Below, one piece after another: positions 4,743 to 52,920 of a stretch of DNA of 64,000 bases. The position numbers were made by a program, and so were the translations under genes. Origin of the DNA: a virus; IMG/VR virus record IMGVR_UViG_3300032047_002388, positions 1 through 64,000 of that record. One strand, written 5' to 3'. Within the stretch, counting starts at the first letter, position 1. Every line of letters starts with the position of its first letter. The notes under the pieces are model-generated. The model worked only from the letters and a program-made list of their open reading frames with translations, did no database searches and was not told where the DNA came from.

Positions 4743-5216
4743 ATGATATATTGGTTTACAGGACAACCAGGAGCAGGCAAAACAACTCTTGGTAAAAAGT
4801 TACATTCATTTCTTAAAACAGAAAAGCGAAATTGGAGGAGAGATGTTTTCCATTTAGATGGAGATGACCTCCGAGAACTCACAACCAACAAAGATTATTC
4901 AGAAGAGGGTAGAATCACAAACATTCGAAACGCTCATATGATTGCACAATACCTACATAATAATGGGTGTGATGTGGTAGTATCTCTTGTTGCACCATAT
5001 CGTTGGTTAAGAGAGGAGTTTAAAGAAAAGATAGGTGTACATGAATTCCAAGAGTTTTATGTACATACAACTGAAAAGAGAGAACGAGATAGGTATAAAT
5101 CAAAAGACTACGAACAACCAGAGGTTAATTTTATTGATGTAGATACTACAAAAGATTCACCAGATATATCTTTCTCAAGAATCATAAATAATCTCGGTAA
5201 AACTGTTGTAAAATGA
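4743..5216 (+). CDS. cysC: adenylylsulfate (APS) kinase-like
   Basis: The 157-residue protein has a Walker A loop GQPGAGKTT (residues 7-15), HLDGDDLR (37-44), a YSEEGR..N motif (52-60) and SLVAPYR (81-87). These line up in order with the APS-kinase signatures of CysC. The enzyme makes PAPS, the sulfate donor, from APS and ATP. It is shorter than the usual 200 residues but keeps the catalytic blocks and a C-terminal F-IDVDT segment. It overlaps the next gene by 4 nt. DUF2061 lies 1.2 kb downstream, and five sulfotransferase-like genes occur in the window, so sulfate activation is a coherent role. Confidence 0.85.
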   Translation: MIYWFTGQPGAGKTTLGKKLHSFLKTEKRNWRRDVFHLDGDDLRELTTNKDYSEEGRITNIRNAHMIAQYLHNNGCDVVVSLVAPYRWLREEFKEKIGVHEFQEFYVHTTEKRERDRYKSKDYEQPEVNFIDVDTTKDSPDISFSRIINNLGKTVVK

Positions 5217-19587: not shown

Positions 19588-19892
19588 CTGCGTTTATTGG
19601 TGCTCAAGATATCTACGAGTGGGTAACTAGTGAAGATGGTAGAGCAACAATGTTTCCTATTTTGATGAGTGGTGTTGAAAAGACAATAGAAGAGGATTTA
19701 GAAGAACATCATGTTCTTAGAGTAGAATCTTTGGTAAATTACAATATGCAGAAGTTCAACTTCTATGTCAAGAGAGATGATTTATCCGATACATTAGATA
19801 AAATAATGGAGTGGGCATTAGAAGAAGAAGAATATGAAATCTGTGCAAGAGTTAAAAAAGTAGAAGAGAAACTTGTAAAAGAAGAATTTTGA
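19557..19892 (+). CDS. hypothetical protein with UVR-like C-terminal motif
   Basis: The 111-residue protein ends WALEEEEYEICARVKKVEEKL, close to the UVR-type motif (EEEDYExAAxxRD) used by UvrB/UvrC and Clp adaptors for protein contacts. The 39784 protein here ends with a similar segment. The N-terminal half is unfamiliar. It overlaps the next gene by 4 nt. Confidence 0.65.
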   Translation: MGKSKKGRVLTAFIGAQDIYEWVTSEDGRATMFPILMSGVEKTIEEDLEEHHVLRVESLVNYNMQKFNFYVKRDDLSDTLDKIMEWALEEEEYEICARVKKVEEKLVKEEF

Positions 19893-20632
19893 AAATATTA
19901 GTTATAGGAGATAGTTGTACCGATATATTCGTATATGGTAGTTGTACAAGGTTATGTCCAGAAGCACCCATACCAGTATTCCAACCATCCAAAACCATAA
20001 CAAATCAAGGTATGGCTGGAAACGTTGTTGAAAACCTCAGAGCATTAGGAGTTAGAAAAACTGAACTAATAACAAACAACGAACAAATCCAAAAGACAAG
20101 ATATGTAGAAACCAAATCAAACCAAATGCTACTCAGAGTAGATGGTAATGATAAGGTCTCTAATTCATTTGATTATCGTAAAGTTGATTTTGATTCATAC
20201 GATGCAGTGATTGTTGCAGATTATGATAAAGGATATCTAACTTATCAAGATATAGGTAAAATCGGTGAAAATTCTAAACTATCTTTTATTGATACAAAAA
20301 AGACAATAGGTAGTGGAGATTATTTCAAAGATTATACATTTGTAAAAATGAATGAAGTTGAGTGGGAAAATTGTGTTGAAAAAGGTGCAGTTTATTCTGA
20401 GTGGAAAAAATCATTGATTGTAACTATGTCTGAGAGAGGATGTATGTACGATGAAAAAAGATATCCAGTCGATACTTCAGTTGAGGTTAGAGATTTGAGT
20501 GGTGCAGGAGATACTTGGATGGCATCATTCGTAATGAAATATGTAGAAACAAAAAGTATAGATGAATCAATACAGTTTGCAAATGAAAATGCAACAATAG
20601 TAGTACAAAAAAGAGGTGTTACAACAATATGA
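19889..20632 (+). CDS. PfkB-family sugar kinase, HldE N-domain-like
   Basis: The 247-residue protein starts with a TTG (MKILVIGDSCTDIFVYG) and has IPVFQPSKTITNQGMAGNVVENLRALG, close to the heptose-7-phosphate kinase domain of HldE/RfaE. Near the end LSGAGDTWMASF is the PfkB catalytic motif with Asp as base. It is shorter than the 310-residue HldE kinase. The HldE-like nucleotidyltransferase at 61625 would be the matching second step, 41 kb away. Sugar identity uncertain. Confidence 0.85.
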   Translation: MKILVIGDSCTDIFVYGSCTRLCPEAPIPVFQPSKTITNQGMAGNVVENLRALGVRKTELITNNEQIQKTRYVETKSNQMLLRVDGNDKVSNSFDYRKVDFDSYDAVIVADYDKGYLTYQDIGKIGENSKLSFIDTKKTIGSGDYFKDYTFVKMNEVEWENCVEKGAVYSEWKKSLIVTMSERGCMYDEKRYPVDTSVEVRDLSGAGDTWMASFVMKYVETKSIDESIQFANENATIVVQKRGVTTI

Positions 20633-21039
20633 GAAAATACTTACCAACATTAGGAGAACTTATAGATAGATTAACTATCGTTCAGTTAAAAGAAGTTAAG
20701 ATTCCACAACACAAAGAGGAATATCAAAAAGAAATCAAAGATATCGTACATGATATTAATGAAATATTATTAGATGAAAAACTTCCAAGAGATATCGTTG
20801 ATGGGGATATGATTAGGGCAATAGTGGTGTTATCACAAATGAATACTCATATTTGGGTGAATGAAGATAAAGCAAGAAGTGGTGAAAATAAAGGAAATGA
20901 TTTACTGCTCACTCATGGTTTAAATGGAATCAGAAACACAGCCAAAAATAAAATACAAGAGAAAGTTGGTGGTAGAAAAGATTACAAAATAGATTGTATC
21001 GCATCTGATTTTAAAGATTGGGAAGTATCGTGGGAGTAA
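20629..21039 (+). CDS. GELIDRLTI-family protein of surface-sugar clusters
   Basis: The 136-residue protein has TLGELIDRLTIVQLKE near its start. That motif is seen in uncharacterised helical proteins beside sugar kinases and glycosyltransferases in phages and bacteria. It is mostly helical with no catalytic motif. It overlaps the kinase stop by 4 nt, so it belongs to the same operon. Function unknown. Confidence 0.7.
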   Translation: MRKYLPTLGELIDRLTIVQLKEVKIPQHKEEYQKEIKDIVHDINEILLDEKLPRDIVDGDMIRAIVVLSQMNTHIWVNEDKARSGENKGNDLLLTHGLNGIRNTAKNKIQEKVGGRKDYKIDCIASDFKDWEVSWE

Positions 21040-21554
21040 CTGAAATAAATACCATATTTTCTGAAGTAGAGTTTTCTTATATAAAAAAAGAATTTGAATC
21101 TAGTAAATTTATAGAAAACAATACTTGGGAAGAAGGAATTATACATTTCAGTAAACCAGTAGAGATATCTCAAATAGAAAATAAAGATATTATCAAATTA
21201 ATTAATAATGCAATTAAAAGAACAGGTATATCACCACTAGATAAAAATGTAATCAAGGGTGCTCTATTTTATAAATGGGGACCTGGTTCTTACATTCCAT
21301 GGCATCATGATTCAAATTATTCAGCTGGATTAACAGTATATTTGAACGATGATTGGAATTATAAAAATGGTGGATTATTTGTGTACAAAGATGATGAGGA
21401 TATCAAAACAATAGTACCTCAAAAAAATAAAGGAGTTTTACAAATCGGAGGAGTTGCACATTCAACTACGATAATATCAAAGAGGTCTGAACCGAGAAAA
21501 ACTTTACAGATATTTTTTGATAAGTTTAACGATTTAAATAATTATATTATATGA
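21018..21554 (+). CDS. 2-oxoglutarate/Fe(II) oxygenase
   Basis: A 178-residue protein with IPWHHDSNYSAGLTVYLN (HxD metal ligands), GGLFVY, GVAHST (second His) and PRKTLQIFF (Arg for 2-oxoglutarate), matching the double-stranded beta-helix dioxygenases. The TTG at 21018 is used here; a GTG at 21030 would overlap the previous gene only by 10 nt. Typically hydroxylates prolyl or sugar-type substrates. One of five such enzymes here. Confidence 0.82.
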   Translation: MGSIVGVTEINTIFSEVEFSYIKKEFESSKFIENNTWEEGIIHFSKPVEISQIENKDIIKLINNAIKRTGISPLDKNVIKGALFYKWGPGSYIPWHHDSNYSAGLTVYLNDDWNYKNGGLFVYKDDEDIKTIVPQKNKGVLQIGGVAHSTTIISKRSEPRKTLQIFFDKFNDLNNYII

Positions 21555-22405
21555 CAAGACAAGTATTAGTTACAGGTGGTGCAGGATTTATAGGTTCTAA
21601 CCTAGTGAAACGATTAGTTAAAGAAGGGTATAGAGTTGTATCATTGGATGATTACTCAACAGGCAATAAAGATAATCATATCGAAGGTGTAAAATATATC
21701 ACTGGTGATATTGAATTAATAGAATACATAAAAGGTGATTTTGAAACTTGTTATCATATTGCTGCACAATCAAGAGTACAACCTTCGTTTGATGACCCAA
21801 CAGAATGTTTTAGGGTTAATGTGAAAGGAACTCAAGCAGTGATGGAATGGGCAAGAGCAAACAATATAAAAGTTGTATATGCTGGTTCATCATCCAAACA
21901 CCACAACCCATCAGATTCCCCATATGCTATGTACAAATATCTAGGAGAAGAGGTTTGTAAGTTATATAAGAAAACTTATGATGTTGATGTTAGAATATGT
22001 AGATTTTATAATGTTTATGGACCAGGTGAATCTTTGGATGTAAAATTTGGAAATGTTATAGGTATATGGAGAACCTTAATTGAAGAAGGTAAAGCCCTAC
22101 CAATAGTGGGCGATGGAGAACAGAGAAGAGATTTCACTTATGTGGATGATATTATCGATGGGTTATTTAAGGCATGTAATTCTAATTTTAATCATGCAGA
22201 TGCATGGGAGTTAGGATGTGGTAAAAATTACTCAATAAATGAATTGTTTGGGATGTTTAAAGAAAAGTATCCAAATATAGAAACTAAAACATTACCAGAC
22301 CAAAAAGGAAATTATAGAGAAACATTAAATAGAAATAAAGAGGCAAGAGACCTATTAGGTTGGGAGCCTAGGGATATGTTATACGATTACATAAAATCAT
22401 TATGA
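21551..22405 (+). CDS. NAD-dependent sugar epimerase/dehydratase (extended SDR)
   Basis: The 284-residue protein begins VLVTGGAGFIGSNLVKRL (GxxGxxG NAD site), has YSTGNKDNH, AAQSRVQPS, and YAMYKYLGE (YxxxK active site), and QRRDFTYVDD. This is typical of UDP-glucose 4-epimerase-like enzymes acting on nucleotide sugars. Slightly shorter than 310-330 residues but complete in motifs. Overlaps both neighbours by 4 nt. Confidence 0.92.
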   Translation: MTRQVLVTGGAGFIGSNLVKRLVKEGYRVVSLDDYSTGNKDNHIEGVKYITGDIELIEYIKGDFETCYHIAAQSRVQPSFDDPTECFRVNVKGTQAVMEWARANNIKVVYAGSSSKHHNPSDSPYAMYKYLGEEVCKLYKKTYDVDVRICRFYNVYGPGESLDVKFGNVIGIWRTLIEEGKALPIVGDGEQRRDFTYVDDIIDGLFKACNSNFNHADAWELGCGKNYSINELFGMFKEKYPNIETKTLPDQKGNYRETLNRNKEARDLLGWEPRDMLYDYIKSL

Positions 22406-23181
22406 TAAACAAAAAGAACGAGTGGAATCAAAGTAAATCTAAATGGGGTTTTGGTAGAACCAAAATTGATAACTTTTTAGATGAAGAAACTGCATACCAA
22501 TTATATGAAGAGTGTATGAACGCTCCAAAAGGTGGATGGACAGTATTTACTCGTGCTGGTTCAAGAATGGAAGAGTTCAACGATTTGATTTCATTACCAA
22601 CTGCACATAGGGTAACTTATGATATAATGCATAGTGGTGAGTTTCTATACGAGTTAGAACAAATGACTGGGATTGTAGGATTATTACCAGACCCACATTT
22701 GGTTGGAGCAGGATACTCAATAATCAGAAATAGTAAAGATTTGGGTTGTCATTATGATTTCAATTGGAATGATAGAATCAGATTACATAGAAAACTAACT
22801 TCACTTTTATATATCACACCAGATTGGAATGATGAATGGGGAGGTCATATTCAGTATTGGGATGATAATATAGATGTTAATCCAAACTCACCATTAATTG
22901 AATCAGTATCACCAAAATTTAATCGATTGGTAATCAATGAGAATGTAAAACAAGCACCATACCACAGAGTGAGTGAAGTAAAATCACCAGAGGATAAACC
23001 AAGATGTGCAATAAGATTTTTCTATTATATTTCTACATCAGAATACGATAAAGATAATCCACCACATCGAAGTACATATAAATCAAATGAATATTCACAC
23101 CATAAATTACATGAAGAAGAAAATTGGGATGGACACTTTGTAGGACAAGGTGGTGAAGATTATGGTTATAAACCCAAGTAA
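22402..23181 (+). CDS. 2-oxoglutarate/Fe(II) oxygenase, prolyl-hydroxylase-like
   Basis: The 259-residue protein has CHYDFNWNDR (HxD near residue 114), LTSLLYITPDWNDEWGG, APYHRV (distal His) and RCAIRFFYY (Arg). The C-terminus after residue 220 is polar and unstructured-looking. Such enzymes hydroxylate proteins or small molecules using 2-oxoglutarate. Part of the same overlapping operon as the epimerase. Confidence 0.82.
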   Translation: MINKKNEWNQSKSKWGFGRTKIDNFLDEETAYQLYEECMNAPKGGWTVFTRAGSRMEEFNDLISLPTAHRVTYDIMHSGEFLYELEQMTGIVGLLPDPHLVGAGYSIIRNSKDLGCHYDFNWNDRIRLHRKLTSLLYITPDWNDEWGGHIQYWDDNIDVNPNSPLIESVSPKFNRLVINENVKQAPYHRVSEVKSPEDKPRCAIRFFYYISTSEYDKDNPPHRSTYKSNEYSHHKLHEEENWDGHFVGQGGEDYGYKPK

Positions 23182-24137
23182 TGAAATACATTTTAACATC
23201 AGGTTGTTCATTTACTAATAATACTAGATATAATCCTAATAATAAACTAGCAAGTGAGAACTATCCAAACGAGGATTACAAATCTTGGCCTTACTATTTA
23301 CAGAAAGAAGTAGGAGAGGATTATGAAGTTTGGAATCTTGGTGGTGCAACTAATGATAATATAAGTATTATTAGGGTTTTGTTCTATAATATTAAAGAAT
23401 TGATAAATAAAGGAGTAGATTCTGATGATATTACAATTGTAGGACAGTTCTCAGATATTCATAGAAAAGCAATATATCTACCATCAGAGTGGAATTGGGA
23501 TGAACAATTACAATGGAAAGAACACACCTTAAAATATCACGAACATAATGTATGGAAAAAAGATAAGAATGGATTCTTTTTCCTAACTGGTGGATTTGGA
23601 CCACCTGATAATGAAGATGGAACGATGAATATTTTAGGGTTAAATAAATTCATGGAAGAGTATGATATGAAGGTATTAGGAGAATCCTATATAAACGAAA
23701 CTCTTCAATGGTTAGAAACTTGGGCATTCTTTGAAACATTTTGTATTGATAATGATATCGAAACTTATTGGTTTTGGATGAGAAACAATTTATCACAAGA
23801 GGCTTTTGATTGTCACTTCGGTGCACCTGATATGGATAGTGATAAAACATCAAAAAATATATGGTTGAATGAATATGATATCTTAAAACCATATTTGGAT
23901 GAGGTATCTTTCAATGGTAAAAAGATTTGGTCATATAAAAATTACAATGGATTATTGGAGTGGTGTTACGATAATTATGGTGATTTAAATCCATATCAAG
24001 AAACAGTAGGAATGGATGTAAATCATTATCTAACGAAAGTACAACCAAATAAATGGGGTCACCCATCAAAAGAAATGAATGAAAAATTTGTTAAAGAAGA
24101 ACTATTAAAATTTATTGAATATGGAATCAATGGATAG
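23181..24137 (+). CDS. SGNH-like protein
   Basis: The 318-residue protein begins YILTSGCSFTNN (Ser block) with WNLGGATNDNI (Gly/Asn block) and DITIVGQFSDIHRKAI. The C-terminal D/H block is weak (VQPNKWGHPSKEMNEKF). The middle holds a large insertion with many Trp. Its start overlaps the oxygenase stop by one base. Function unknown; possible esterase or acetyltransferase of glycans. Confidence 0.68.
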   Translation: MKYILTSGCSFTNNTRYNPNNKLASENYPNEDYKSWPYYLQKEVGEDYEVWNLGGATNDNISIIRVLFYNIKELINKGVDSDDITIVGQFSDIHRKAIYLPSEWNWDEQLQWKEHTLKYHEHNVWKKDKNGFFFLTGGFGPPDNEDGTMNILGLNKFMEEYDMKVLGESYINETLQWLETWAFFETFCIDNDIETYWFWMRNNLSQEAFDCHFGAPDMDSDKTSKNIWLNEYDILKPYLDEVSFNGKKIWSYKNYNGLLEWCYDNYGDLNPYQETVGMDVNHYLTKVQPNKWGHPSKEMNEKFVKEELLKFIEYGING

Positions 24138-24804
24138 AGAAGAACTTGAGTGGTATCACAACATTCAAGACCCATGGGATTGGGTTACAGTTTTTGAGAA
24201 TACAGTATCAGAGTATTGTGGTTACAAATATGGAATTGCATGTGATTCAAACTCAAATGCAATCAGATTAATGTTAAATTATTTTGGGATTAACCATACA
24301 CATATTGTTATACCAGCAAGAACCTATGTTTCAGTACCAAATCAAATCATATTGAGTGGCAACTACCCAGTCTTTGAAGATTACAAATGGGATGGATTTT
24401 ATCAATTTGGTAGTGATATTCCAATCATAGATGCTGCAACGGCATTCTATGAAGGTATGGGAAAAGACCACCAAGATAAACATATGATACTTTCATTTCA
24501 TAAGAAAAAGATACTTAATATAGGACAGGGTGGAATGATTCTAACAAATGATGAAAAACTTGTAGAATGGGCAAGACCTATGATTTACGATGGTAGACAC
24601 AAAGATAGAATGTATAAAGATGATGAATTTGAGTGTATTGGATGGCATATGTATATGAGTCCAGAATCTGCGATGAGAGGATTACAAATATTCCATTCAC
24701 CTAGAATCCAAAGTTGGAATGAACATTGTGGTTCATCCAAAGTATATGGTGATTTGAGAAAACAAGAAATATTCAAACCTTATGTAAATGATAACAGTAA
24801 ATAA
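24121..24804 (+). CDS. DegT/DnrJ/EryC1-type sugar aminotransferase, short
   Basis: About 228 residues from the ATG at 24121 (a TTG lies 6 nt upstream). It has EYCGYKYGIACDSNSNAIRL, VIPARTYVSVPNQI, IPIIDAAT and ILSFHKKKILNIGQGGMI. The Lys in this last block is the expected PLP-binding residue, as in DegT-family sugar aminotransferases. The family is usually 370 residues, so the C-terminal third is missing or replaced. It may add an amino group to a nucleotide-linked keto sugar. Confidence 0.82.
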   Translation: MESMDREELEWYHNIQDPWDWVTVFENTVSEYCGYKYGIACDSNSNAIRLMLNYFGINHTHIVIPARTYVSVPNQIILSGNYPVFEDYKWDGFYQFGSDIPIIDAATAFYEGMGKDHQDKHMILSFHKKKILNIGQGGMILTNDEKLVEWARPMIYDGRHKDRMYKDDEFECIGWHMYMSPESAMRGLQIFHSPRIQSWNEHCGSSKVYGDLRKQEIFKPYVNDNSK

Positions 24805-25867
24805 GGAATTAGAGTACGATGTATATTTGGGTGATTGGGGTATTGACCTCACTTCATGTTTTTATGAATACAACAACCAATATCAGAAAGTAATGAGTTG
24901 GAACGAGGAGTGTGATGGATACAACGAAGAACACTTCATTGAATCGGTAAAGGAATTTATTAACAAACACCCAAACAAAACAATTTATGTGATTGATAAA
25001 TATGAAGCACATAGTATGAAAGAACATTCAGGCAAAACAATTCAATCACTTATCAAATTTACAGAACAAAATAAACTAGATATAACCTTTGCAGGTGGTG
25101 GATATGATAAACCAGGATTTCCATTTAGAAAAATAACCTATTGGTTAGGGAATAACGCATTCAAAAACAAAGAGATAAAACCAAGAAAGTTTGATAAACA
25201 CTTTCTGTATATGAATCGAATTCGTAAAAAACAAAGAGAAGAACTACTCTTCAGTATGTATAGAGGAAGATATTTAGATAAATGTTATTGGAGTTGGGCA
25301 TCTAATAATCCAGGTGATGGATTACACAAAACAATTGAAGGTGTTGTGATTGATGGTCAGAATTCACATTTAGAAAATGAAATACTACCTGAATTTTTTA
25401 AATCATTCATATCAATCGTACCAGAAACAAATGTTTGGGTAAATGAACACACAAGAGGAGTAGCATTTCCAACAGAAAAAACAGAGAAATGTTTCACTGC
25501 AGGACAACCATTTATTGCAGTATCTACACCAGGATATCTTAGACAATTGAGAAGTTTAGGATTTAGAACATTTGATGGATTTATAAATGAAGATTATGAT
25601 TCATATTATAATGATAAAGAAAGACACGAAAGAATTATGATGTTGATACATGATATTTCAACTTGGTCACTAGAAAAGTGTGAGAGGATATATAAGGAGA
25701 TGATACCTATATTAAAACACAATCAAGAACTAAACGAGAAATATTTAAAACTTCAGAACGATGCAGGATTCTCATTCATAGATGATATCATTGAAGATGA
25801 GGTGTATGAAGATATGTTAATGAAATCAGAAGATAAACAAAGATATAATCCAGACAGATTAATATGA
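24788..25867 (+). CDS. possible glycosyltransferase with FPTEKT...LRSLGFRTF signature
   Basis: The 359-residue protein overlaps the aminotransferase. Near residue 225 SIVPETNVWVNEHTRGVAF precedes FPTEKTEKCFTAGQPF and TPGYLRQLRSLGFRTF. This block recalls the sugar-nucleotide-binding part of exostosin/fucosyltransferase-like enzymes. It recurs in the 3-1004 and 59512 proteins. The N-terminal half is unfamiliar. Assigned as a sugar-related enzyme by pattern and by the neighbouring sugar genes. Confidence 0.6.
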   Translation: MITVNKELEYDVYLGDWGIDLTSCFYEYNNQYQKVMSWNEECDGYNEEHFIESVKEFINKHPNKTIYVIDKYEAHSMKEHSGKTIQSLIKFTEQNKLDITFAGGGYDKPGFPFRKITYWLGNNAFKNKEIKPRKFDKHFLYMNRIRKKQREELLFSMYRGRYLDKCYWSWASNNPGDGLHKTIEGVVIDGQNSHLENEILPEFFKSFISIVPETNVWVNEHTRGVAFPTEKTEKCFTAGQPFIAVSTPGYLRQLRSLGFRTFDGFINEDYDSYYNDKERHERIMMLIHDISTWSLEKCERIYKEMIPILKHNQELNEKYLKLQNDAGFSFIDDIIEDEVYEDMLMKSEDKQRYNPDRLI

Positions 25868-29783: not shown

Positions 29784-30740
29784 ATGATTAGAACCGCAGA
29801 ATTCGTATCACCCTCACATCCAGATAAAATGTGTGATAGAATTTCGGATGCTCTACTAGATTTGTGTTTGGAACAAGACCCAAACTCAAGATGTGCAATC
29901 GAAACTATGGGTGGCAACCAAAAAATCTTCATTACAGGCGAGGTAACAACTGAAGCAAAACTTACAGATGGAGATATCAAACGAGTAGTTAAACAAATTA
30001 CTAACATAGATGATGTAATTATTCATCTAAACACACAATCACCAGAGATTGCTCAAGGAGTTGATACTGGTGGTGCAGGAGACCAAGGAATAATGATTGG
30101 CTATGCTTGTGATGAGAATCAGGAGTATGTTCCCCAAGAGTATTTTTTGGCTAGAAATCTTAATAGATACCTATATGCCAACTACAGGTCAGATGGAAAA
30201 ACCCAAGTTACTATGAATGGTAACTCATTAAGGGTTGTTGCTTCGTTCTGTGGAGCACCGACTGAACAGTTAGAGAAGAAAACAACTAAATTTTTCTCTC
30301 AATTTCCCCAATATCACATTGAAGCATTACATTGTAATCCCGCAGGTGATTGGGATATCGGTGGATTTACTGCCGATGCAGGGTTGACTGGTAGAAAACT
30401 GGCCGTAGATAACTATGGACCAAGAGTTCCACTAGGTGGTGGAGCCTTTAGTGGGAAGGATGCTACCAAAGTTGACAGGTCAGCAGCCTATATGGCGAGG
30501 AGAATCGCAGTAGATATCCTAAAAGAGAAGGGTGCAAAGGAGGTATATGTACAACTTGCATACGCAATTGGGTACGACCAACCTCTTCAAGCCACTGCTA
30601 TCGTAGATGGTGAACACCAATTCGTAAAAGGATATGATTTATCACCAAAAGGAATTATAGATTTCCTTAAATTACAAGAACCAATTTATGAAAGAACAGC
30701 AAATTTCGGACACTTCGGAAATGGATTCGAGTGGAGATAA
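29784..30740 (+). CDS. metK: S-adenosylmethionine synthetase, shortened
   Basis: The 318-residue protein starts EFVSPSHPDKMCDRISDALLD and has GGAGDQGIMIGYA, GGGAFSGKDATKVDRSAAYMAR and QLAYAIG, the MetK signature sequences. Bacterial enzymes are near 390 residues, so about 70 are missing, mostly in the middle and C-terminus. It makes SAM from methionine and ATP and could supply the two SAM-dependent methyltransferases just downstream. Confidence 0.93.
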   Translation: MIRTAEFVSPSHPDKMCDRISDALLDLCLEQDPNSRCAIETMGGNQKIFITGEVTTEAKLTDGDIKRVVKQITNIDDVIIHLNTQSPEIAQGVDTGGAGDQGIMIGYACDENQEYVPQEYFLARNLNRYLYANYRSDGKTQVTMNGNSLRVVASFCGAPTEQLEKKTTKFFSQFPQYHIEALHCNPAGDWDIGGFTADAGLTGRKLAVDNYGPRVPLGGGAFSGKDATKVDRSAAYMARRIAVDILKEKGAKEVYVQLAYAIGYDQPLQATAIVDGEHQFVKGYDLSPKGIIDFLKLQEPIYERTANFGHFGNGFEWR

Positions 30741-36445: not shown

Positions 36446-36645
36446 GATATCCTTCATATAAGAGACCGATTGAAAGAGTTAATAATAAACTATATGTTAT
36501 ACACGCAGAGTACGAACAACATAAGATAAAGAACGTATCAATGGTAAAAGAATGGTTGGGAGTAGATACTGTATTTAGACAACATTCAAAAGGTACTTAT
36601 ATTTTTTGTGAGGAAATTCAAGATGTAGATTGGGAAAATGTATAA
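36442..36645 (+). CDS. hypothetical 67-aa protein
   Basis: Begins with the ATGA overlap. Basic N-terminus and a mixed alpha/beta pattern (NKLYVIHAEYEQHKIK). Overlaps the oxygenase gene by 8 nt. No family recognised. Confidence 0.65.
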   Translation: MRYPSYKRPIERVNNKLYVIHAEYEQHKIKNVSMVKEWLGVDTVFRQHSKGTYIFCEEIQDVDWENV

Positions 36646-37168
36646 TCAAGAAGTAATATTTACCAAAGAAGAATGTAAACGTATCATTGATATGAATAGT
36701 GGATTTACACAAAGTAAATTAGCTTCTGCAGATGATGGATATAAATCATCGGAAAGGTCAAGTTATGATTCTGTAACTAAGACAACTGATGAGATACGAA
36801 ACCTACTTCTACCAAAATTATCTAAATATGGAGTGATTGAATTATCTAATTACTTTAATATTCTAAGATATGAAAAAGGTCAAGAGTTTAAAAAACATAG
36901 AGATATTGGTCTTAACAAACATACAAACAAACGATACAGAACATTAATTATACAACTATCTAACTTTGATGATTATGAAGGTGGTGATTTGATTGTATGG
37001 GATAACAACGAACAAATAGAAACTGTATGTAATAAAGAGATTGGAAATATGATTTTATTCCCATCTAAACTATTACATCAAGCAAAACCAGTTATAAGTG
37101 GAACACGATATGTAATGACATTTTTTCTTACAAACGAACACTTTAACATAAAAAACACTCTAATTTAA
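36638..37168 (+). CDS. 2-oxoglutarate/Fe(II) oxygenase
   Basis: The 176-residue protein has EFKKHRDIGLN (HxD), TLIIQLSNFDDYEGGDLIVW, LHQAKPVISGTRYVMTFFL (distal His and Arg). It is the compact phage-type dioxygenase. One of five in the window. Confidence 0.82.
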   Translation: MYNQEVIFTKEECKRIIDMNSGFTQSKLASADDGYKSSERSSYDSVTKTTDEIRNLLLPKLSKYGVIELSNYFNILRYEKGQEFKKHRDIGLNKHTNKRYRTLIIQLSNFDDYEGGDLIVWDNNEQIETVCNKEIGNMILFPSKLLHQAKPVISGTRYVMTFFLTNEHFNIKNTLI

Positions 37169-40194: not shown

Positions 40195-42549
40195 ATGAAA
40201 GGTACACTATTTTCTAGTGATTTTATCATCGATGAATCTAATAATCTAAGATTACTAGAGTTTAATACAGACTCTGGTTTTATATCAGATACATTAGCTT
40301 CTCGTTTTGATTTTACTGATTTCATATCAGTACTATCTAGTAACAACATCACTAAACTATCGATTTTATATAAGAGTTGGCACAGAGAATTTGTTGACCA
40401 CTTAAACCAAGCAATTGAAAATGATGCAACTTTCATAACAGAATTTTCAAAGATAGAAGAAGCAGAACATACTGTATATCCAACAAACGTAACCGATGAA
40501 TCAGATAGATTTATTCTAAGAATATGTTACGATGAAAATGCAATATTCGATAGTACCTATTGTAAACAAAGAGTTGAAGTTTTAAAATTATTCCACGATA
40601 ATGATGCAACTGGTTCAATACCAGAGTTTAGAGCTAGTGGTAGTAATTGGGAAGGTACTTCAATGTCATCATCATTAAATCTAACAGCAAATTATCCTGA
40701 TTTAGCAGTAAAAGATTTAAGTGAGAATCACAATCCATTGCAGTTTGCTAAGTTCAACTCTACGTTATCATCAGAATCATCTTCGGCTGATTTACTTGAA
40801 GATTATTGGTGGAACTACTTAGATAGAAGTGACCAATACATGGAAAAGTATCACACCAATCCAACTCAAGTATCGAATGGTAAACAACAAACAGTACGAG
40901 AGTATGGTATCTTATATGGTAGTACTATTGAGTATGTAAGAATTGGTAGTTATACAATCGATTCTTTACTGCCAGTTGTTGATATATCTGGTTATGATGA
41001 TGCCAATAAAGCAGCAGATAATATACCAAACAAACATTACTTTGAATATACAACTAACTTTATCAGAACTAAGAATTGGAAAGATTCATTATTAGATTCA
41101 GAGGTTATAGTTAAATCAGATGGTTCATTTGTTTCGGTTGATGAAGCAATCATAGGTGATAATATAAAATCATATATTGTAAGTGGTTCACCTGATACTG
41201 ATGATGTAGATGTATTTGGTTCTTGGTCTTATGATGGTTCAACACTTCCATCGGGTTCTGAAGTAACATCATCTAATATCACATCTTTCAGTTCTGAATC
41301 ATTAGTATATGGAACTGGTATAGAACTTGTATTACCAACTGAAGAAACTATATATTTTGCACCATATAAAAACATATTAACATATAACTCATCATCCGAT
41401 GAATTTAAGTTTAAATCAGCACATACACTTCTACCAGGAGATGGTGGGGATTATCTTATAGATGGAACAGGTGGATTAATACCAATATCACAATCTAATA
41501 CATTTATATTAAACGATTCAAATCAAAATGAATATTATCAAGTTGACGTTGAGACAACCGATACATTCTTTATTTCTGCTTCAACTCCATTTGTAGTACA
41601 CAACGCACCATGTTTTATCGCAGGTACTAAAGTTCATATAGAAGAAAAAGGAATAACAAACATAGAAGATGTAGAAGTTGGTGATAAAGTAATTTCATAT
41701 AATCACGATACTGATACTGTTGAGTATAGAGAAGTTTTAAAAGTTAGAGAACAAGAAGGTAAGAATGTTGTAACTTATATATTTGAAAATGGTACAACAC
41801 TTAGTGCTACACCCGACCACCCATTGTTTGTAAATGGTAAAGGATATTCATCTTACTATCCTAAACAAACAAAAGAAGATAGTGGATTTGATGTAGAACA
41901 AATATTATTAGGAGATGAGGTTTTACACATGGACGGGTATGGTGTTGTTATAGATGATATAATAGAAGAACCAGTTACTCATACTGTATATAACCTAGAA
42001 GAAGTAGATGGTAATAATAATTTCTTTGTAGAAAATCTTCTTGCACATAATAGATATCTAACACCTCAAACTTGTTTTGCAGCAGGTACTCAAATCTCAT
42101 TATCAAATGGTGATGTTAAAGATATAGAAGATATAGTTGTAGGTGATGAAGTATTAGGATGGGATGGAGATACGATAGATTCAGCTGAAGTAATAGCAAT
42201 AGACCACAGACATACAGTTGGTTCTCACGCAGATGCTTGTGAATCAATAGGAGATGTACCTTCACTATATACAATAAATGATACTGAAATAGAATTCACA
42301 CCAGAACATCCATTCTTAACTAAAGAAGGTTGGAAATCACTAGTACCAGACCCTAAACAAGAACCATACCTATCAAGTGGAGAATTAAAAATATTAAAAA
42401 TAGGTGATTATATAAACAAAGATGGTGAATGGATAGAGATAGAAGATATAAGAATCATTCGTTCAGATGCAGAAGAACCAGTTTATAATATTACAGTTGA
42501 TAAGTTACATTCTTATATAGCAAATGGAATAATCGTACACAATAAATAA
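40195..42549 (+). CDS. virion-type protein with three tandem Hint (intein-like) domains
   Basis: The 784-residue protein has an N-terminal region (about 1-300) resembling marine phage structural proteins (GTLFSSDFIIDESNN). Three Hint units follow. Unit 1, about 302-470, has DSEVIVKSDG in place of the catalytic Cys start, then GDNIKSY, and ends FVVHN (469-470 HN). Unit 2 starts CFIAGTKV (Cys473), has ATPDHPLF and ends LLAHN (618-619). Unit 3 starts CFAAGTQI (Cys627), has FTPEHPF and ends IIVHNK (782-784). Hint domains drive self-cleavage or splicing. With no real extein between them and one residue after the last, autoprocessing or cross-linking is likelier than splicing. Unit 1 looks inactive. 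Confidence 0.8.
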   Translation: MKGTLFSSDFIIDESNNLRLLEFNTDSGFISDTLASRFDFTDFISVLSSNNITKLSILYKSWHREFVDHLNQAIENDATFITEFSKIEEAEHTVYPTNVTDESDRFILRICYDENAIFDSTYCKQRVEVLKLFHDNDATGSIPEFRASGSNWEGTSMSSSLNLTANYPDLAVKDLSENHNPLQFAKFNSTLSSESSSADLLEDYWWNYLDRSDQYMEKYHTNPTQVSNGKQQTVREYGILYGSTIEYVRIGSYTIDSLLPVVDISGYDDANKAADNIPNKHYFEYTTNFIRTKNWKDSLLDSEVIVKSDGSFVSVDEAIIGDNIKSYIVSGSPDTDDVDVFGSWSYDGSTLPSGSEVTSSNITSFSSESLVYGTGIELVLPTEETIYFAPYKNILTYNSSSDEFKFKSAHTLLPGDGGDYLIDGTGGLIPISQSNTFILNDSNQNEYYQVDVETTDTFFISASTPFVVHNAPCFIAGTKVHIEEKGITNIEDVEVGDKVISYNHDTDTVEYREVLKVREQEGKNVVTYIFENGTTLSATPDHPLFVNGKGYSSYYPKQTKEDSGFDVEQILLGDEVLHMDGYGVVIDDIIEEPVTHTVYNLEEVDGNNNFFVENLLAHNRYLTPQTCFAAGTQISLSNGDVKDIEDIVVGDEVLGWDGDTIDSAEVIAIDHRHTVGSHADACESIGDVPSLYTINDTEIEFTPEHPFLTKEGWKSLVPDPKQEPYLSSGELKILKIGDYINKDGEWIEIEDIRIIRSDAEEPVYNITVDKLHSYIANGIIVHNK

Positions 42550-44185: not shown

Positions 44186-44701
44186 ATGAATAAAGCAGAC
44201 TATGTTCAGATGCGAATATATGCACCTGATTTTAAAATGCCATGTGAACTTGATGATAGATACTCCTATATTGAGATTTCAGAATATTCCCACGAAAAAG
44301 ATTTACTGAAAATAATCGATAGTATTAACGAAACACTATCTGATTGGAAAACCAGACCTGATGTTGATAATCTTAAAAAAAGATTTGAAGCAGGGAGTTC
44401 TTGTTTTATACAATATTTTAAAGGAGAAGTAACTGGTTGGTTTTGGACTTGTAATTTCTTAACACACGATTGGGTTGAAAAGGTAAAAGATTTACCAACA
44501 CCAAACTCAAACTATTCAGGTGGAACATATGTAATTAAAAAAGTTGCACCTAGAAATGCGGGATATCAACTATATGCATACTGTATTGAGAAAGTAATGA
44601 GTAGAACTGATTATGGATATGCGTATGTAGATAAATGGAACAAAGCACCAATCAGATTAAACTTTAATTGTGGAGCTACTTATATAGATAACTTACTATG
44701 A
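44186..44701 (+). CDS. GNAT-like acetyltransferase
   Basis: The 171-residue protein has CFIQYFKGEVTGWFW, a central YVIKKVAPRNAGYQLYAYCIEK that aligns with the acyl-CoA loop of GNAT folds, and NKAPIRLNFNCGATY typical of the last strand. The R-x-x-G-x-G/A loop is degenerate (RNAGYQ). It might acetylate an amino sugar. Confidence 0.6.
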   Translation: MNKADYVQMRIYAPDFKMPCELDDRYSYIEISEYSHEKDLLKIIDSINETLSDWKTRPDVDNLKKRFEAGSSCFIQYFKGEVTGWFWTCNFLTHDWVEKVKDLPTPNSNYSGGTYVIKKVAPRNAGYQLYAYCIEKVMSRTDYGYAYVDKWNKAPIRLNFNCGATYIDNLL

Positions 44702-45189
44702 TTTACAAAATATCAGAAGAAGAAGTTTCTACATTGGAAAATCTAATTAGTACTACGAGTAAAAGTAAGGATAACCAAGAAGAACAATTAACAGAGACAC
44801 AAGATTATATCAACAATCGTAGGTATGTATTGCCAGATATTGATATAGAATATTATTCTACTGATAATAAAGAACTAAACAAAAAACTTTCAGAGATTTT
44901 AAAGGTAGATGATGTAGTACCAATTACAATACATAAGTTCAAATATGAAAATGGTGCACATTCAAAAAGACACAATGATGTTAACTCTAATCAAACATTT
45001 GTAATAATATTAGAAGATGATTATGAGGGAGGTGATTTTTATTTAAATGATGAGTTAACTGATTTTAGAAATAGAGGAGATGTTGCAACTTATGTGGGTA
45101 AAGAAAGTCCTCACTATGTAACTCCAATAACAAAAGGAACCCGAACTGTATTAGTAGTTTGGTATCCTAAAAAAGATACACTAATATAA
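44698..45189 (+). CDS. 2-oxoglutarate/Fe(II) oxygenase
   Basis: The 163-residue protein has SKRHNDVNSNQTFVIILEDDYEGG (HxD), SPHYVTPITKGTRTVLVVW (distal His, Arg), the compact phage oxygenase type. It overlaps neighbours by 4 and 1 nt. Confidence 0.8.
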   Translation: MIYKISEEEVSTLENLISTTSKSKDNQEEQLTETQDYINNRRYVLPDIDIEYYSTDNKELNKKLSEILKVDDVVPITIHKFKYENGAHSKRHNDVNSNQTFVIILEDDYEGGDFYLNDELTDFRNRGDVATYVGKESPHYVTPITKGTRTVLVVWYPKKDTLI

Positions 45190-48863: not shown

Positions 48864-49692
48864 TAAAGTAAATTTACCAATTGGATGGACTGAAGAAATT
48901 CCAAAATATTGGACAGACCCAAGTAAGATAAACGCATGGGTTGGTGAACCTATTGAATCTAATAAGTTTCTTTTAGTTAGTTGGAGAATGGCAGGTTCAG
49001 AATTTTGTAAAGAGTTAATACGAGAGAATTATCCAGAAACAGTAAATATAAACCATTGGTCAAAGAGTCATATTATCATAGGAAAGAAACTTACTCAACA
49101 GTTAATTGATAATGCAAACACCAAAGTGTTCATGATAATATCAGACCCGAGAGATGTTGCAAGTAACTTAGTTAGTTTTGAGAATGGATTTGGGTTACAC
49201 TACCATGGTCATCATGATTATACACATGGTACGTCTGATTCAAATAGTGTAACATTTTTAAATGAAGTTGCCGATAAACAAATTGAGTTAGTAAATCATT
49301 ATACAAAAAGATTTGGTGATAACTGTATTGTACTGCGATATGAAGATGCATTTCAAAACCAAGATAAATTTCACAATCAAGTATCTAAGTTTATCGGATA
49401 CGAACCATTAGGTATTGATGATGTTAGAAAATATAAATGGTCAATCTATAAAAATGTAGGGTTGTTTAGAAACCACTTTGACTCAGATGTTTTAACCAAA
49501 CACTACAATGAGTACAAATGGTTTTATGATAAATGGGAATATCCAATTGAAGGAATGAATGATTTAAGATATGGATGGCATAGATTTAATGATAAGGTAA
49601 ATGGGAGACAACTTACCGAAGATTATAAACAGATGTTAAAAAGAAATGGAGTTTCCGAATCCGATAGAACAAACAATATAGATGAATTCTAA
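48856..49692 (+). CDS. sulfotransferase-like protein
   Basis: The 278-residue protein has FLLVSWRMAGSEFCKELI (phosphosulfate loop region), VFMIISDPRDVASNLVSFENG (3'-phosphate site with Asp-Pro-Arg-Asp) and IVLRYEDAF, all in the correct order for PAPS sulfotransferases. It lies in a run with GT25-like and other sulfotransferase genes, fitting sulfation of glycans. Confidence 0.78.
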   Translation: MYNKVNLPIGWTEEIPKYWTDPSKINAWVGEPIESNKFLLVSWRMAGSEFCKELIRENYPETVNINHWSKSHIIIGKKLTQQLIDNANTKVFMIISDPRDVASNLVSFENGFGLHYHGHHDYTHGTSDSNSVTFLNEVADKQIELVNHYTKRFGDNCIVLRYEDAFQNQDKFHNQVSKFIGYEPLGIDDVRKYKWSIYKNVGLFRNHFDSDVLTKHYNEYKWFYDKWEYPIEGMNDLRYGWHRFNDKVNGRQLTEDYKQMLKRNGVSESDRTNNIDEF

Positions 49693-51157
49693 GAAAAATG
49701 TTATAGTAGTTTCGGCAAGAAGAAGTGGTACGCATCTTCTTCATGATTTAATAGTTAATAATTTTGGATATGAAAGTACTAATTACAACTATATAGATTA
49801 CTATAAATTTACAGATGAAATGGAAGGGTTTGAATCATCTATGAATGAAGGCGGTAAAATAACTTGGACTCATTCTCATGATTATAAGGATTACCACAAA
49901 TACAATCATAGTATTGATAACCAAAATAAATTAGATAGATTCTTTTCCGAATCTAAAATTATATTAGTTTACAGAGATGTTAGAGATATAATAACATCAT
50001 GTTATCACAGACCAAGATATAAATCTAAATATAAAACATTTGATAACTTTTACAAGAACTTCGATTTCGATGGATGTGAATTGATTGACCAGAAATACGA
50101 TAATATGTTTGAATTATTACTTCAGTATTATAAGAATTGGTTTTCTGTTTACATGGCAAAAGAACTTCTTGATATCGATATGGAAGTAATATCGTTTGAA
50201 GAAATAATAAAAGATTACGATTTTTCAGTATCTAAGATAGGAAAGTTTTTAGAACAAACACCAACGGGAGTTGATGTTAGGTTACCAAATAAAAATAATG
50301 AAAACATTATTTACACAACCAATGATTTTAGAAATGGAAAGATTAATGATTGGCTTTCGACTATGGAACAGCAATTTGGTACAGAGTTGGGTGAAAGGTT
50401 TTACCATGACTTAGGTGCAGGTTTAGATTGTTTTTTAAACGATATAAAGATACATAAATATCATAATCCTCAGCGAAATAAGTTTTACAAACCCATTCCA
50501 CTAAATGTTGAAAAAGATTTAACATCTGAATTAGAACAATATAAAAATAAATTTAGGTTCTTCGGTGAAAGAGGTGCAATAGAATTAATAGAGAATAGAT
50601 ACAAAGATTCAATACAGAAATCAACAGATTTCAGATACTATCACAAAGTTTTTTATTACGATAAATATGTATTGAAATTTCACTATCCATGTAAAGCAAG
50701 TTTAGATAAAAAAACATTTGATTCTACAATACCTACTGCATCAAAAGAACAACTCTTAACGATTCTTAAAACAAATGATTTTCTATATGAAAATGGTATT
50801 GTTCCTAAACTATATCATGCAGGAATCTACAAAGGAATTTTGTATGTTATACAAGAAAGATATTCTGAAGAAAGTATAATTTATAACAAATACAATTTTC
50901 ATCCTAAGTGGGATAATTTTTTCCAATGGGCAGTTGATTTGGGTTTAGACAGACAATTAAAAGAATATTTTTTCAAAGCATTAGAGAACAATATTTTACT
51001 AACTGATTTAATCAATGTATATAATAATGCAATTGATAAGAATGGTAATATAAAATACTTTGATTTAGATGGTATAAAATATTTCGAAACAAAAGAAGAA
51101 ATGATTAACTCAGAAGATTATAAAAACTCAATAGGTATTATAAAAGACATAACATGA
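49682..51157 (+). CDS. sulfotransferase fused to kinase-like domain
   Basis: The 491-residue protein has VVSARRSGTHLLHDLI (PAPS loop, residues 9-20 area), ILVYRDVRDIITS (3'-phosphate site) and EVISFEEIIKDY, a complete sulfotransferase domain (about 1-255). The C-terminal part has YYHKVFYYDKYVLKFHY, NGIVPKLYHAG, DLINVYNNAIDKNGNI and FDLDG, resembling the lobes of protein- or aminoglycoside-kinase folds with an altered catalytic loop. I know no described fusion of this kind. It could sulfate one substrate and phosphorylate or bind another. Confidence 0.7.
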   Translation: MNSKKNVIVVSARRSGTHLLHDLIVNNFGYESTNYNYIDYYKFTDEMEGFESSMNEGGKITWTHSHDYKDYHKYNHSIDNQNKLDRFFSESKIILVYRDVRDIITSCYHRPRYKSKYKTFDNFYKNFDFDGCELIDQKYDNMFELLLQYYKNWFSVYMAKELLDIDMEVISFEEIIKDYDFSVSKIGKFLEQTPTGVDVRLPNKNNENIIYTTNDFRNGKINDWLSTMEQQFGTELGERFYHDLGAGLDCFLNDIKIHKYHNPQRNKFYKPIPLNVEKDLTSELEQYKNKFRFFGERGAIELIENRYKDSIQKSTDFRYYHKVFYYDKYVLKFHYPCKASLDKKTFDSTIPTASKEQLLTILKTNDFLYENGIVPKLYHAGIYKGILYVIQERYSEESIIYNKYNFHPKWDNFFQWAVDLGLDRQLKEYFFKALENNILLTDLINVYNNAIDKNGNIKYFDLDGIKYFETKEEMINSEDYKNSIGIIKDIT

Positions 51158-51846: not shown

Positions 51847-52297
51847 TATTTTTGAAACATATACGAGTGGTTTAAAAGATAATTTATTTATAGTTACAAA
51901 AGTTATTGTAAAAGATAACAAAGGTAAGTTTCATATAAACACGTCTATACCTCAAGAAATCTTTTTAAGTATAATCGATTTTTCTCTTAATTTTGATAAT
52001 CTAAAATTTGTTTGTAGAGCAAATCATGATGATAACGCAGGTACACCAAATAGTAATCAAATAACTCTATTACGAAAATATGGTAAGATATTTTTTCAAG
52101 ACCCTTGGCCAACACCTGTACCAAATTTTAAATCTGATTCTGTTGTATTTAGATTTGGATATGATGAAGGATGTGAATATGATAAAATGTGTGCACACAA
52201 TCCAATTCACAATGTAGAAGAAAATGATGGAACGTATTACTATTTAATAAGTAAAAATAATATAGTGAAATTGGAATCAAAAAAAATATTAATATGA
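51839..52297 (+). CDS. hypothetical 152-aa protein
   Basis: Beta-rich soluble protein (NLFIVTKVIVKDNKGKFHINT, SVVFRFGYDEGCEYDKMC) with two Cys-containing loops. It overlaps the neighbouring GT25 and sulfotransferase genes by a few bases. No known family recognised. Confidence 0.65.
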   Translation: MNNIFETYTSGLKDNLFIVTKVIVKDNKGKFHINTSIPQEIFLSIIDFSLNFDNLKFVCRANHDDNAGTPNSNQITLLRKYGKIFFQDPWPTPVPNFKSDSVVFRFGYDEGCEYDKMCAHNPIHNVEENDGTYYYLISKNNIVKLESKKILI

Positions 52298-52920
52298 AAC
52301 AAAAAATATTAATAATAGGTCAACCAAGAAGTGGTACATCATCATTACTAAATAATATATGTAAACAAGATTATGTACGAATATCAGAACCATATAATTA
52401 TAGTTTCGGTGAAAGATATGAATGGCCATTAAAGGAATTAGAATCCGATAGAGTGGCAATAAAATCTTTGGTTGTACAAATACCATCCAAAGAAAAATCA
52501 AAAGGATGTATGCACTTCGTTGAGTTTTCTAAGTTAGTTGATAGAGTTATATTATTAAAAAGAAATAACCAACAAGAACATTTTGAAAGTTTATTAAACT
52601 TACATTATAGATTACTTCAAGATAATAAAATAAATTCACATAAGAAATATGTATTTGATGGATTACTTTTTAGTAAAATTCCAAAAGGTCTTATTACTAA
52701 AATAGAAGAACTACAGCAAAACTCACTAGAGGATATAACTGAAGTATCTGAAAAATTAAATATTCAACCCACTTCCTATGAAGATTTATATGGGGAAGAT
52801 AGAATGAAATCATTTGAAATAATAAACAAATGGGATTTAGATTTAGACCCATTTGAACTAAACGAAGCTTTACATCCCCAACATAGATACAGACAGTTCA
52901 CAGATAAGAATCTTTTATAG
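52294..52920 (+). CDS. sulfotransferase-like protein, short
   Basis: The 208-residue protein starts ILIIGQPRSGTSSLLNNI (PAPS loop) and has VDRVILLKRNNQQEHFESLL (3'-phosphate site, RNN instead of RDP) and TSYEDLYG. These match the Stf0/Sulfotransfer_3 style with shifts. The last gene of the second surface island before a promoter. Confidence 0.75.
   Translation: MKQKILIIGQPRSGTSSLLNNICKQDYVRISEPYNYSFGERYEWPLKELESDRVAIKSLVVQIPSKEKSKGCMHFVEFSKLVDRVILLKRNNQQEHFESLLNLHYRLLQDNKINSHKKYVFDGLLFSKIPKGLITKIEELQQNSLEDITEVSEKLNIQPTSYEDLYGEDRMKSFEIINKWDLDLDPFELNEALHPQHRYRQFTDKNLL

What the first reader, a model, noticed from the sequence alone, without database searches (positions are those of the whole stretch)
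40195..42549. Three tandem Hint domains in one probable virion protein
Units end in HN (470, 619, 783) and units 2 and 3 begin with CF.AGT. Unit 1 lacks the nucleophilic Cys. There is almost no extein between them, so the protein cannot work as a classical intein. It may self-cleave in steps, link to another molecule, or serve as a timed assembly switch. A triple arrangement with one decayed unit is not something I know as described.
Basis: partly seen in the sequence, partly recalled or inferred. Interest (0 to 1): 0.9.

Follow-up and report, generated by a model that had tools for sequence, protein, structure and literature searches.

The report
Tandem self-cleaving Hint array in phage
A protein of uncultured, mostly marine T4-like phages carries a row of intein-like self-cutting domains at its tail end; their number varies from one to four among relatives and the last one is swapped between phages like a cassette, an arrangement I could not find described.

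Summary
The 784-residue ORF (40195-42549) has two full Hint domains (473-619, 627-783; Pfam, NCBIfam and PDB matches) and, before them, a third divergent one (about 297-470). Unit 1 was the doubtful part; three sequence or structure tests support a Hint fold. It is not decay: in 60 family members from IMG/VR the Cys1 column is Gly/Ala/Ser/Asp, never Cys, but the terminal Asn is 60/60 and the domain is under purifying selection.

The family is an uncharacterised N-domain plus this N-dead, C-competent Hint plus 0 to 3 further units. All 98 further units keep Cys1, 88 end His-Asn, and none of those 88 has Cys/Ser/Thr at +1, so splicing is not expected. All 44 His-Asn-ended last units have Lys at +1, 39 of them as HNK-stop. 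Copy number changed at least 9 times. The last unit is exchanged alone between divergent proteins (99% identical where the N-domains are 43%), with DNA similarity beginning near its Cys codon and ending at the stop codon.

Most likely the array cuts itself off at the unit 1/unit 2 junction, giving one mature core of about 470 residues. Lys+1 isopeptide ligation is an open, more novel reading. Nothing supports a virion role.

The parts
40195..42549 (+). Whole ORF, 784 aa (MKGTLFSSDF... to ...GIIVHNK-stop)
   Evidence: start conserved in the family as M-K/Q/N-G-T
40195..41082 (+). N-domain (residues 1-296), phage-specific, no known family; invariant E22, T25, D26 and nearly invariant N24 in RLLEFNTD look like an ATP-grasp motif (lead only)
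   Evidence: no Pfam or PDB match; model too poor to use
41083..41604 (+). Unit 1: divergent Hint domain (about residues 297-470) lacking Cys1, with Ser298 in the Cys1 column (Gly in 55 of 60 relatives)
41599..41604 (+). H469-N470, unit 1 terminal His-Asn; Asn in 60/60, His-Asn in 57/60
41605..41610 (+). A471-P472, two-residue link between unit 1 and unit 2 (0 to 12 residues in the family, 2 in 29 of 54)
41611..42051 (+). Unit 2: Hint domain, C473 to H618-N619, block B TPDHP (539-543)
42052..42072 (+). RYLTPQT, seven-residue link; Arg is the commonest residue after an internal Asn (26 of 44)
42073..42543 (+). Unit 3: Hint domain, C627 to H782-N783, block B TPEHP (702-706); the exchangeable terminal cassette
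42544..42549 (+). K784 and stop: single residue after the last Asn; Lys in 44/44 family members whose last unit ends in His-Asn

Best explanation
The protein is a self-processing precursor. An N-domain is permanently fused to a Hint unit that has lost the N-terminal reaction but kept the residues for the C-terminal one (Asn cyclisation), followed by a removable array of A-type BIL-like Hint units. Unit 2's Cys473 activates the bond before it as a thioester, and unit 1's Asn470 cyclises and cuts two residues upstream, so both conserved activities act on the same junction (HN-AP-C; in 11 relatives one and the same Asn-Cys bond). The product is one mature core of about 470 residues whatever the array length; the Hint units cut themselves apart and are by-products. 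The terminal unit is an exchangeable cassette, swapped and duplicated by recombination between phages and tolerated because it removes itself. Shown: unit identities, conservation of catalytic residues, lack of a +1 nucleophile, copy-number change, cassette exchange. Inferred: that cleavage happens, its order, and that the core is the functional product.
For: All 54 family members with further units have Asn at the end of unit 1 and Cys at the start of unit 2. All 98 further units keep Cys1, 89 show T..H of block B, 88 end in His-Asn, and none of those 88 has C/S/T at +1. BIL domains without a +1 nucleophile give mainly cleaved products (PMC7664689; PMC7765530). Six relatives consist of N-domain plus unit 1 plus a 5-10 residue tail, that is, the core alone. 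N470 is one of 3 invariant columns in unit 1 at 39% mean identity. Unit copy number changes at least 9 times and terminal type at least 6 times on the N-domain tree. Cassette exchange: N-domain versus last-unit identity 43/99 (L134/L150), 32/75 (this protein/L177), 49/86, 45/82, and the reverse 74/33; correlation of N-domain identity with unit 1 is 0.83, with the last unit 0.29. DNA similarity begins near the unit's Cys codon and ends at or within a few bases of the stop. After exchange the cassette is under strong purifying selection (dS 0.19, dN 0.003).
Against: No cleavage has been observed; all is sequence. Nine last units lack the terminal Asn (eight of the SGLGDN/S type and L178) and could cut only on their N side. 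Strong selection on the cassette fits a useful role better than a tolerated passenger. Invariant Lys+1 is not needed for plain cleavage. Three relatives have lost the His before unit 1's Asn.
Confidence: 0.5

Rival explanations
1. Ligation, not just removal: the last unit's Cys1 thioester is attacked by the side chain of Lys+1 (or by an outside amine), joining the upstream segment to lysine or to another molecule by an isopeptide bond, as BIL2 of the Tetrahymena BUBL1 protein does.
For: Lys at +1 in 44/44 His-Asn-ended last units, 39 as HNK-stop; 18 of about 41 unrelated phage Hint proteins also have Lys+1 (counted by eye). BIL2, the best PDB sequence match of the unit 1 profile and second only to 2LWY for the whole protein, makes a Lys eps-NH2 isopeptide bond and works as a ubiquitin-dispensing platform (PMC8616854).
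Against: In BIL2 the lysine sits in a folded downstream domain; here it is the last residue, so self-ligation would merely add a lysine. No partner is known. Several cassettes lack Asn and Lys+1 altogether.
Confidence: 0.2
2. Hedgehog-like tethering: Cys473 passes the whole N-domain-unit 1 segment to an outside nucleophile (lipid, sugar or protein).
For: Cys1 is the one residue kept in all 98 further units, also in the types without Asn; neighbours include sulfotransferase-like and 2OG-Fe(II) oxygenase modification genes.
Against: No sterol-recognition-like or other downstream region; the 2-residue spacing to Asn470 suggests cutting; such neighbours are common in this genome anyway.
Confidence: 0.13
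3. The Hint units are structural modules (receptor-binding or assembly parts) and do not cut.
For: Related Hint units sit near the end of long fibre-like phage proteins; terminal exchange resembles exchange of tail-fibre tips.
Against: Catalytic residues are among the best-conserved positions; Cys1 98/98 and Asn 60/60 in unit 1 are hard to explain without chemistry.
Confidence: 0.12
4. Ordinary inteins that splice out.
For: Hint fold, Cys1 and His-Asn present.
Against: No C/S/T at +1 in units 2 or 3, no C-extein after unit 3, no endonuclease domain, unit 1 lacks Cys1.
Confidence: 0.02

Closest known systems
[quoted passage not shown]
   Same: Cys1, block B T..H, terminal His-Asn, no nucleophile at +1, found in variable protein regions (units 2 and 3)
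   Different: Here in head-to-tail arrays with 0-12 residue links, Lys fixed after the last Asn, and a permanent N-dead unit in front; in a phage protein
Tetrahymena BUBL1 polyubiquitin-BIL protein (BIL2, PDB 6TMM/6Y75)
   Same: Intein-like processing domain in a multidomain chain; best PDB sequence match to unit 1; uses a lysine as acceptor
   Different: BIL2 is flanked by ubiquitin-like cargo domains; here the units are head to tail with no cargo between them
Class 2 inteins
   Same: No Cys1, terminal Asn kept; 11 relatives even have Cys directly after unit 1's Asn
   Different: In the window protein +1 is Ala and unit 1 shows no block B T..H motif, so splicing is unlikely
Neisseria MafB and other polymorphic toxins with BIL/PT-HINT domains and exchangeable C-terminal cassettes (PMC4287609)
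   Same: Hint domain plus recombination of C-terminal cassettes
   Different: There the cassette is a toxin with an immunity gene; here the exchanged piece is the Hint unit itself, ending at the stop codon, with no toxin and no co-transferred gene seen
Hedgehog Hog-Hint and B-type BIL
   Same: Last units of SGLGDN type keep Cys1 but lack the terminal Asn
   Different: No sterol-recognition region; only 8 of 54 last units are of this type

Membership tests
Hint superfamily (unit 1) | Hint fold | tested here: met
   Profile hits to 6TMM/6Y75 and 2LWY, hhalign to unit 3, Foldseek; the model itself is of modest confidence
Hint superfamily (unit 1) | Nucleophilic Cys/Ser at position 1 | tested here: not met
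   Gly 55, Ala 3, Asp 1, Ser 1 (the window protein) of 60; Ser is not conserved
A-type BIL (units 2 and 3) | Cys1 and block B T..H | tested here: met
   C473/T539-H542 and C627/T702-H705
A-type BIL (units 2 and 3) | C-terminal His-Asn | tested here: met
   H618-N619, H782-N783; invariant in the 12 closest sequences
A-type BIL (units 2 and 3) | No Cys/Ser/Thr at +1 | tested here: met
   R620 and K784; 0 of 88 in the family
A-type BIL (units 2 and 3) | Auto-cleavage activity | not testable with these tools
   needs expression and mass spectrometry
Intein (splicing) | +1 nucleophile and a C-extein to ligate | tested here: not met
   the protein ends one residue after N783
Class 2 intein (unit 1) | No Cys1, terminal Asn, +1 Cys/Ser | tested here: not met
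   +1 is Ala471 here; 11 relatives have +1 Cys and 6 have Ser
Virion structural protein | Homology to or synteny with head/tail genes | tested here: not met
   no proteomics available, so a virion role is not excluded
Polymorphic toxin with PT-HINT | Toxin domain after the Hint domain and an immunity gene | tested here: not met
   single Lys after the last unit; DNA similarity ends at the stop codon

The most novel reading that the evidence does not exclude
A family of mobile Hint cassettes exchanged at the 3' ends of phage genes, whose terminal unit uses its fixed +1 lysine for isopeptide ligation of the upstream protein (a phage-encoded, ATP-free conjugation platform), while a preceding N-dead Hint unit releases the finished core by Asn cyclisation.
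Probability: 0.15. Interest if true: 0.85.

Novelty: new variant of a known kind. Interest (0 to 1): 0.62.

Why it matters
It shows Hint domains used as a tandem, variable-number, recombining tail rather than as single inteins or single BIL domains. It gives a natural series (0, 1, 2 or 3 further units, with and without terminal Asn, Lys+1 fixed) for asking what BIL domains are for, which is still open. If the Lys+1 reading holds, it is a small ATP-independent protein-ligation system of use in protein engineering. The exchanged cassette is also a clean example of recombination bounded at a single protein domain.

Tried and rejected
Intein splicing (no +1 nucleophile, no C-extein). Unit 1 as unrelated filler (rejected). 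Unit 1 as a decaying pseudo-domain (rejected and by Asn 60/60). AXH (Ataxin-1/HBP1) as the domain identity: it is the top Pfam hit, but the full-length catalytic motifs and the BIL/intein matches decide for Hint. Toxin cassette with immunity gene (nothing is co-transferred). Homing endonuclease inside the units (nearly all units are about 135-175 aa, too short to hold one). Assembly chimera as the cause of the exchanged cassette (the copies differ at synonymous sites and come from several independent contigs). Identity of the N-domain: Pfam, PDB profile, Foldseek on a poor model, and tblastn in phage isolates gave nothing usable; a weak ATP-grasp flavour (E-x-N motif, GSP_synth E 0.05 in one member, ATP-grasp enzymes among weak Foldseek hits) is only a lead. 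Bacterial genomes: no relative of the N-domain confirmed in GTDB species genomes. The first single-protein scan found nothing because it needs near-identical peptides; profiles solved that.

Full report
What was checked. The window lies in a 128,139-base virus record of a T4-like phage: terminase, portal, prohead protease and baseplate wedge genes match T4-type families; the nearest isolates by terminase are Microcystis phage Mel-JY01 and Flavobacterium immuto phages at 55-56%. Units 2 and 3 are Hint domains by Pfam, NCBIfam and PDB comparison, with Cys1, T..H and His-Asn.

Unit 1. Alone it has no Pfam Hint match. I collected relatives, built a 51-sequence profile and asked again. The profile matches solved BIL domains at both ends, with the Cys1 column falling on a glycine of the family and the C-terminus exactly on His-Asn. 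It aligns with unit 3 over its whole length (the 11-sequence profile aligned only the C-terminal half, and did not align meaningfully with unit 2). An AlphaFold model made from unit 1 only returns Hedgehog, BIL and intein structures as its best Foldseek hits; pLDDT is 64 and TM about 0.3, so this supports but does not prove the fold. Across 60 members Cys1 is never present (Gly 55, Ala 3, Asp 1, Ser 1, the Ser being the window's own protein), while the terminal Asn is 60/60 and His-Asn 57/60. dN/dS for unit 1 in close pairs is about 0.08 to 0.23. So unit 1 is a maintained Hint unit, dead at its N side and with the residues for the C-side reaction kept.

The family. 80 loci, 62 distinct proteins, 60 complete enough to analyse. 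All have N-domain plus unit 1; 6 have nothing more than a 5-10 residue tail, 14 have one further unit, 36 two, 4 three (the first automatic count missed the second further unit of L116 and L135). Links are 0-12 residues. Of 98 further units all have Cys1, 88 end in His-Asn and none of those has C/S/T at +1. After internal Asn the commonest residue is Arg (26 of 44); after the last Asn it is always Lys (44/44), usually the very last residue (39/44). Of the ten other last units, eight end VSGLGDN(S)... instead of His-Asn, one (L178) ends differently and one (L120) is cut short.

Exchange. On the N-domain tree unit number changes at least nine times and terminal type at least six times (the root is drawn at the midpoint only, and several branches are weak; L178 was counted there with the SGLGDN type). 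Pairwise identities of N-domain and unit 1 go together (r 0.83), N-domain and first further unit less (0.67), N-domain and last unit hardly (0.29). L134 and L150 have 43% identical N-domains, 32% unit 1, 38% unit 2 and 99% last units. At DNA level the block runs from near the Cys codon to the stop codon and both flanks are unlike. The same holds for the window's own unit 3 against L177 (75% protein, 76% DNA, from about residue 625 to K784). Conversely L121 and L122 share 74% of the N-domain but have different last units. After exchange the L134/L150 cassette has dN/dS 0.016, so it is kept by selection. How the exchange happens is not known; homologous recombination between Hint-coding sequences is my guess.

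Mechanism. The conserved Asn of unit 1 and the conserved Cys of unit 2 flank the same junction in all 54 proteins that have further units; in 11 they share one peptide bond. With no +1 nucleophile, BIL domains mainly cleave (PMC7664689, PMC7765530). I therefore propose that the array removes itself to leave one core. The fixed Lys+1 is not explained by that and points to the BIL2/BUBL1 precedent, where a lysine side chain accepts the N-extein (PMC8616854). Both are inference; no activity has been measured.

Context. The nearest genes are not head or tail genes: dCMP deaminase upstream, PhoH downstream, 2OG-Fe(II) oxygenase-like genes in the neighbourhood of 44 of 52 loci and sulfotransferase-like genes in 25. 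A virion role is neither supported nor excluded. Hint units of the same kind do sit near the end of long fibre-like proteins in other phages, which keeps the question open. No relative of the N-domain was found in 50,697 phage records or confirmed in the GTDB species genomes, so the family is known only from uncultured viruses here.

Limits. Relatives were found by short conserved peptides plus tblastn, so counts are lower bounds and biased to near kin; all relatives are metagenome contigs. The Lys+1 count covers related sequences, not independent events. The literature search covers open-access papers only and found no tandem Hint array.

Noticed in passing
window 4743-5216, 49682-51157, 52294-52920: APS kinase (PF01583, E 5e-20) together with a sulfotransferase (PF00685, E 2e-10, at 49682): the phage may make its own sulfate donor for sulfation. 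The gene at 52294 looks sulfotransferase-like by eye but had no Pfam match.
   Followed up: partly
window 19889-25867 and 29784-30740: Sugar-biosynthesis cluster (PfkB-type kinase, NAD-dependent epimerase, DegT-type aminotransferase) and an S-adenosylmethionine synthetase.
   Followed up: partly
window 36638-37168, 44698-45189: 2OG-Fe(II) oxygenase-like genes lie near the Hint-array gene in 44 of 52 loci.
   Followed up: partly
L194, L196, L200, L202, L203, L207, L215, L217, L222, L232: Single Hint units, mostly toward the C-terminal end of long fibre-like or Gly-rich phage proteins, with Lys directly after His-Asn; some preceded by poly-Gly runs.
   Followed up: partly
L087, L088: Kin phages carry further Hint proteins: one behind a poly-Gly stretch, one in the middle of a 438-aa protein before an Ig-like region.
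   Followed up: no
window 41611-42072, unit 2: Pfam AXH (Ataxin-1/HBP1) scores higher than any Hint model (E 1.5e-21), and solved AXH domains match the family profile at about 1e-5: AXH and Hint may be related, or the Pfam model is mixed.
   Followed up: no
L116, L122, L127, L135, L138, L144, L149, L181: A second type of terminal Hint unit with Cys1 but SGLGDN/S in place of His-Asn, exchanged with the HNK type.
   Followed up: partly
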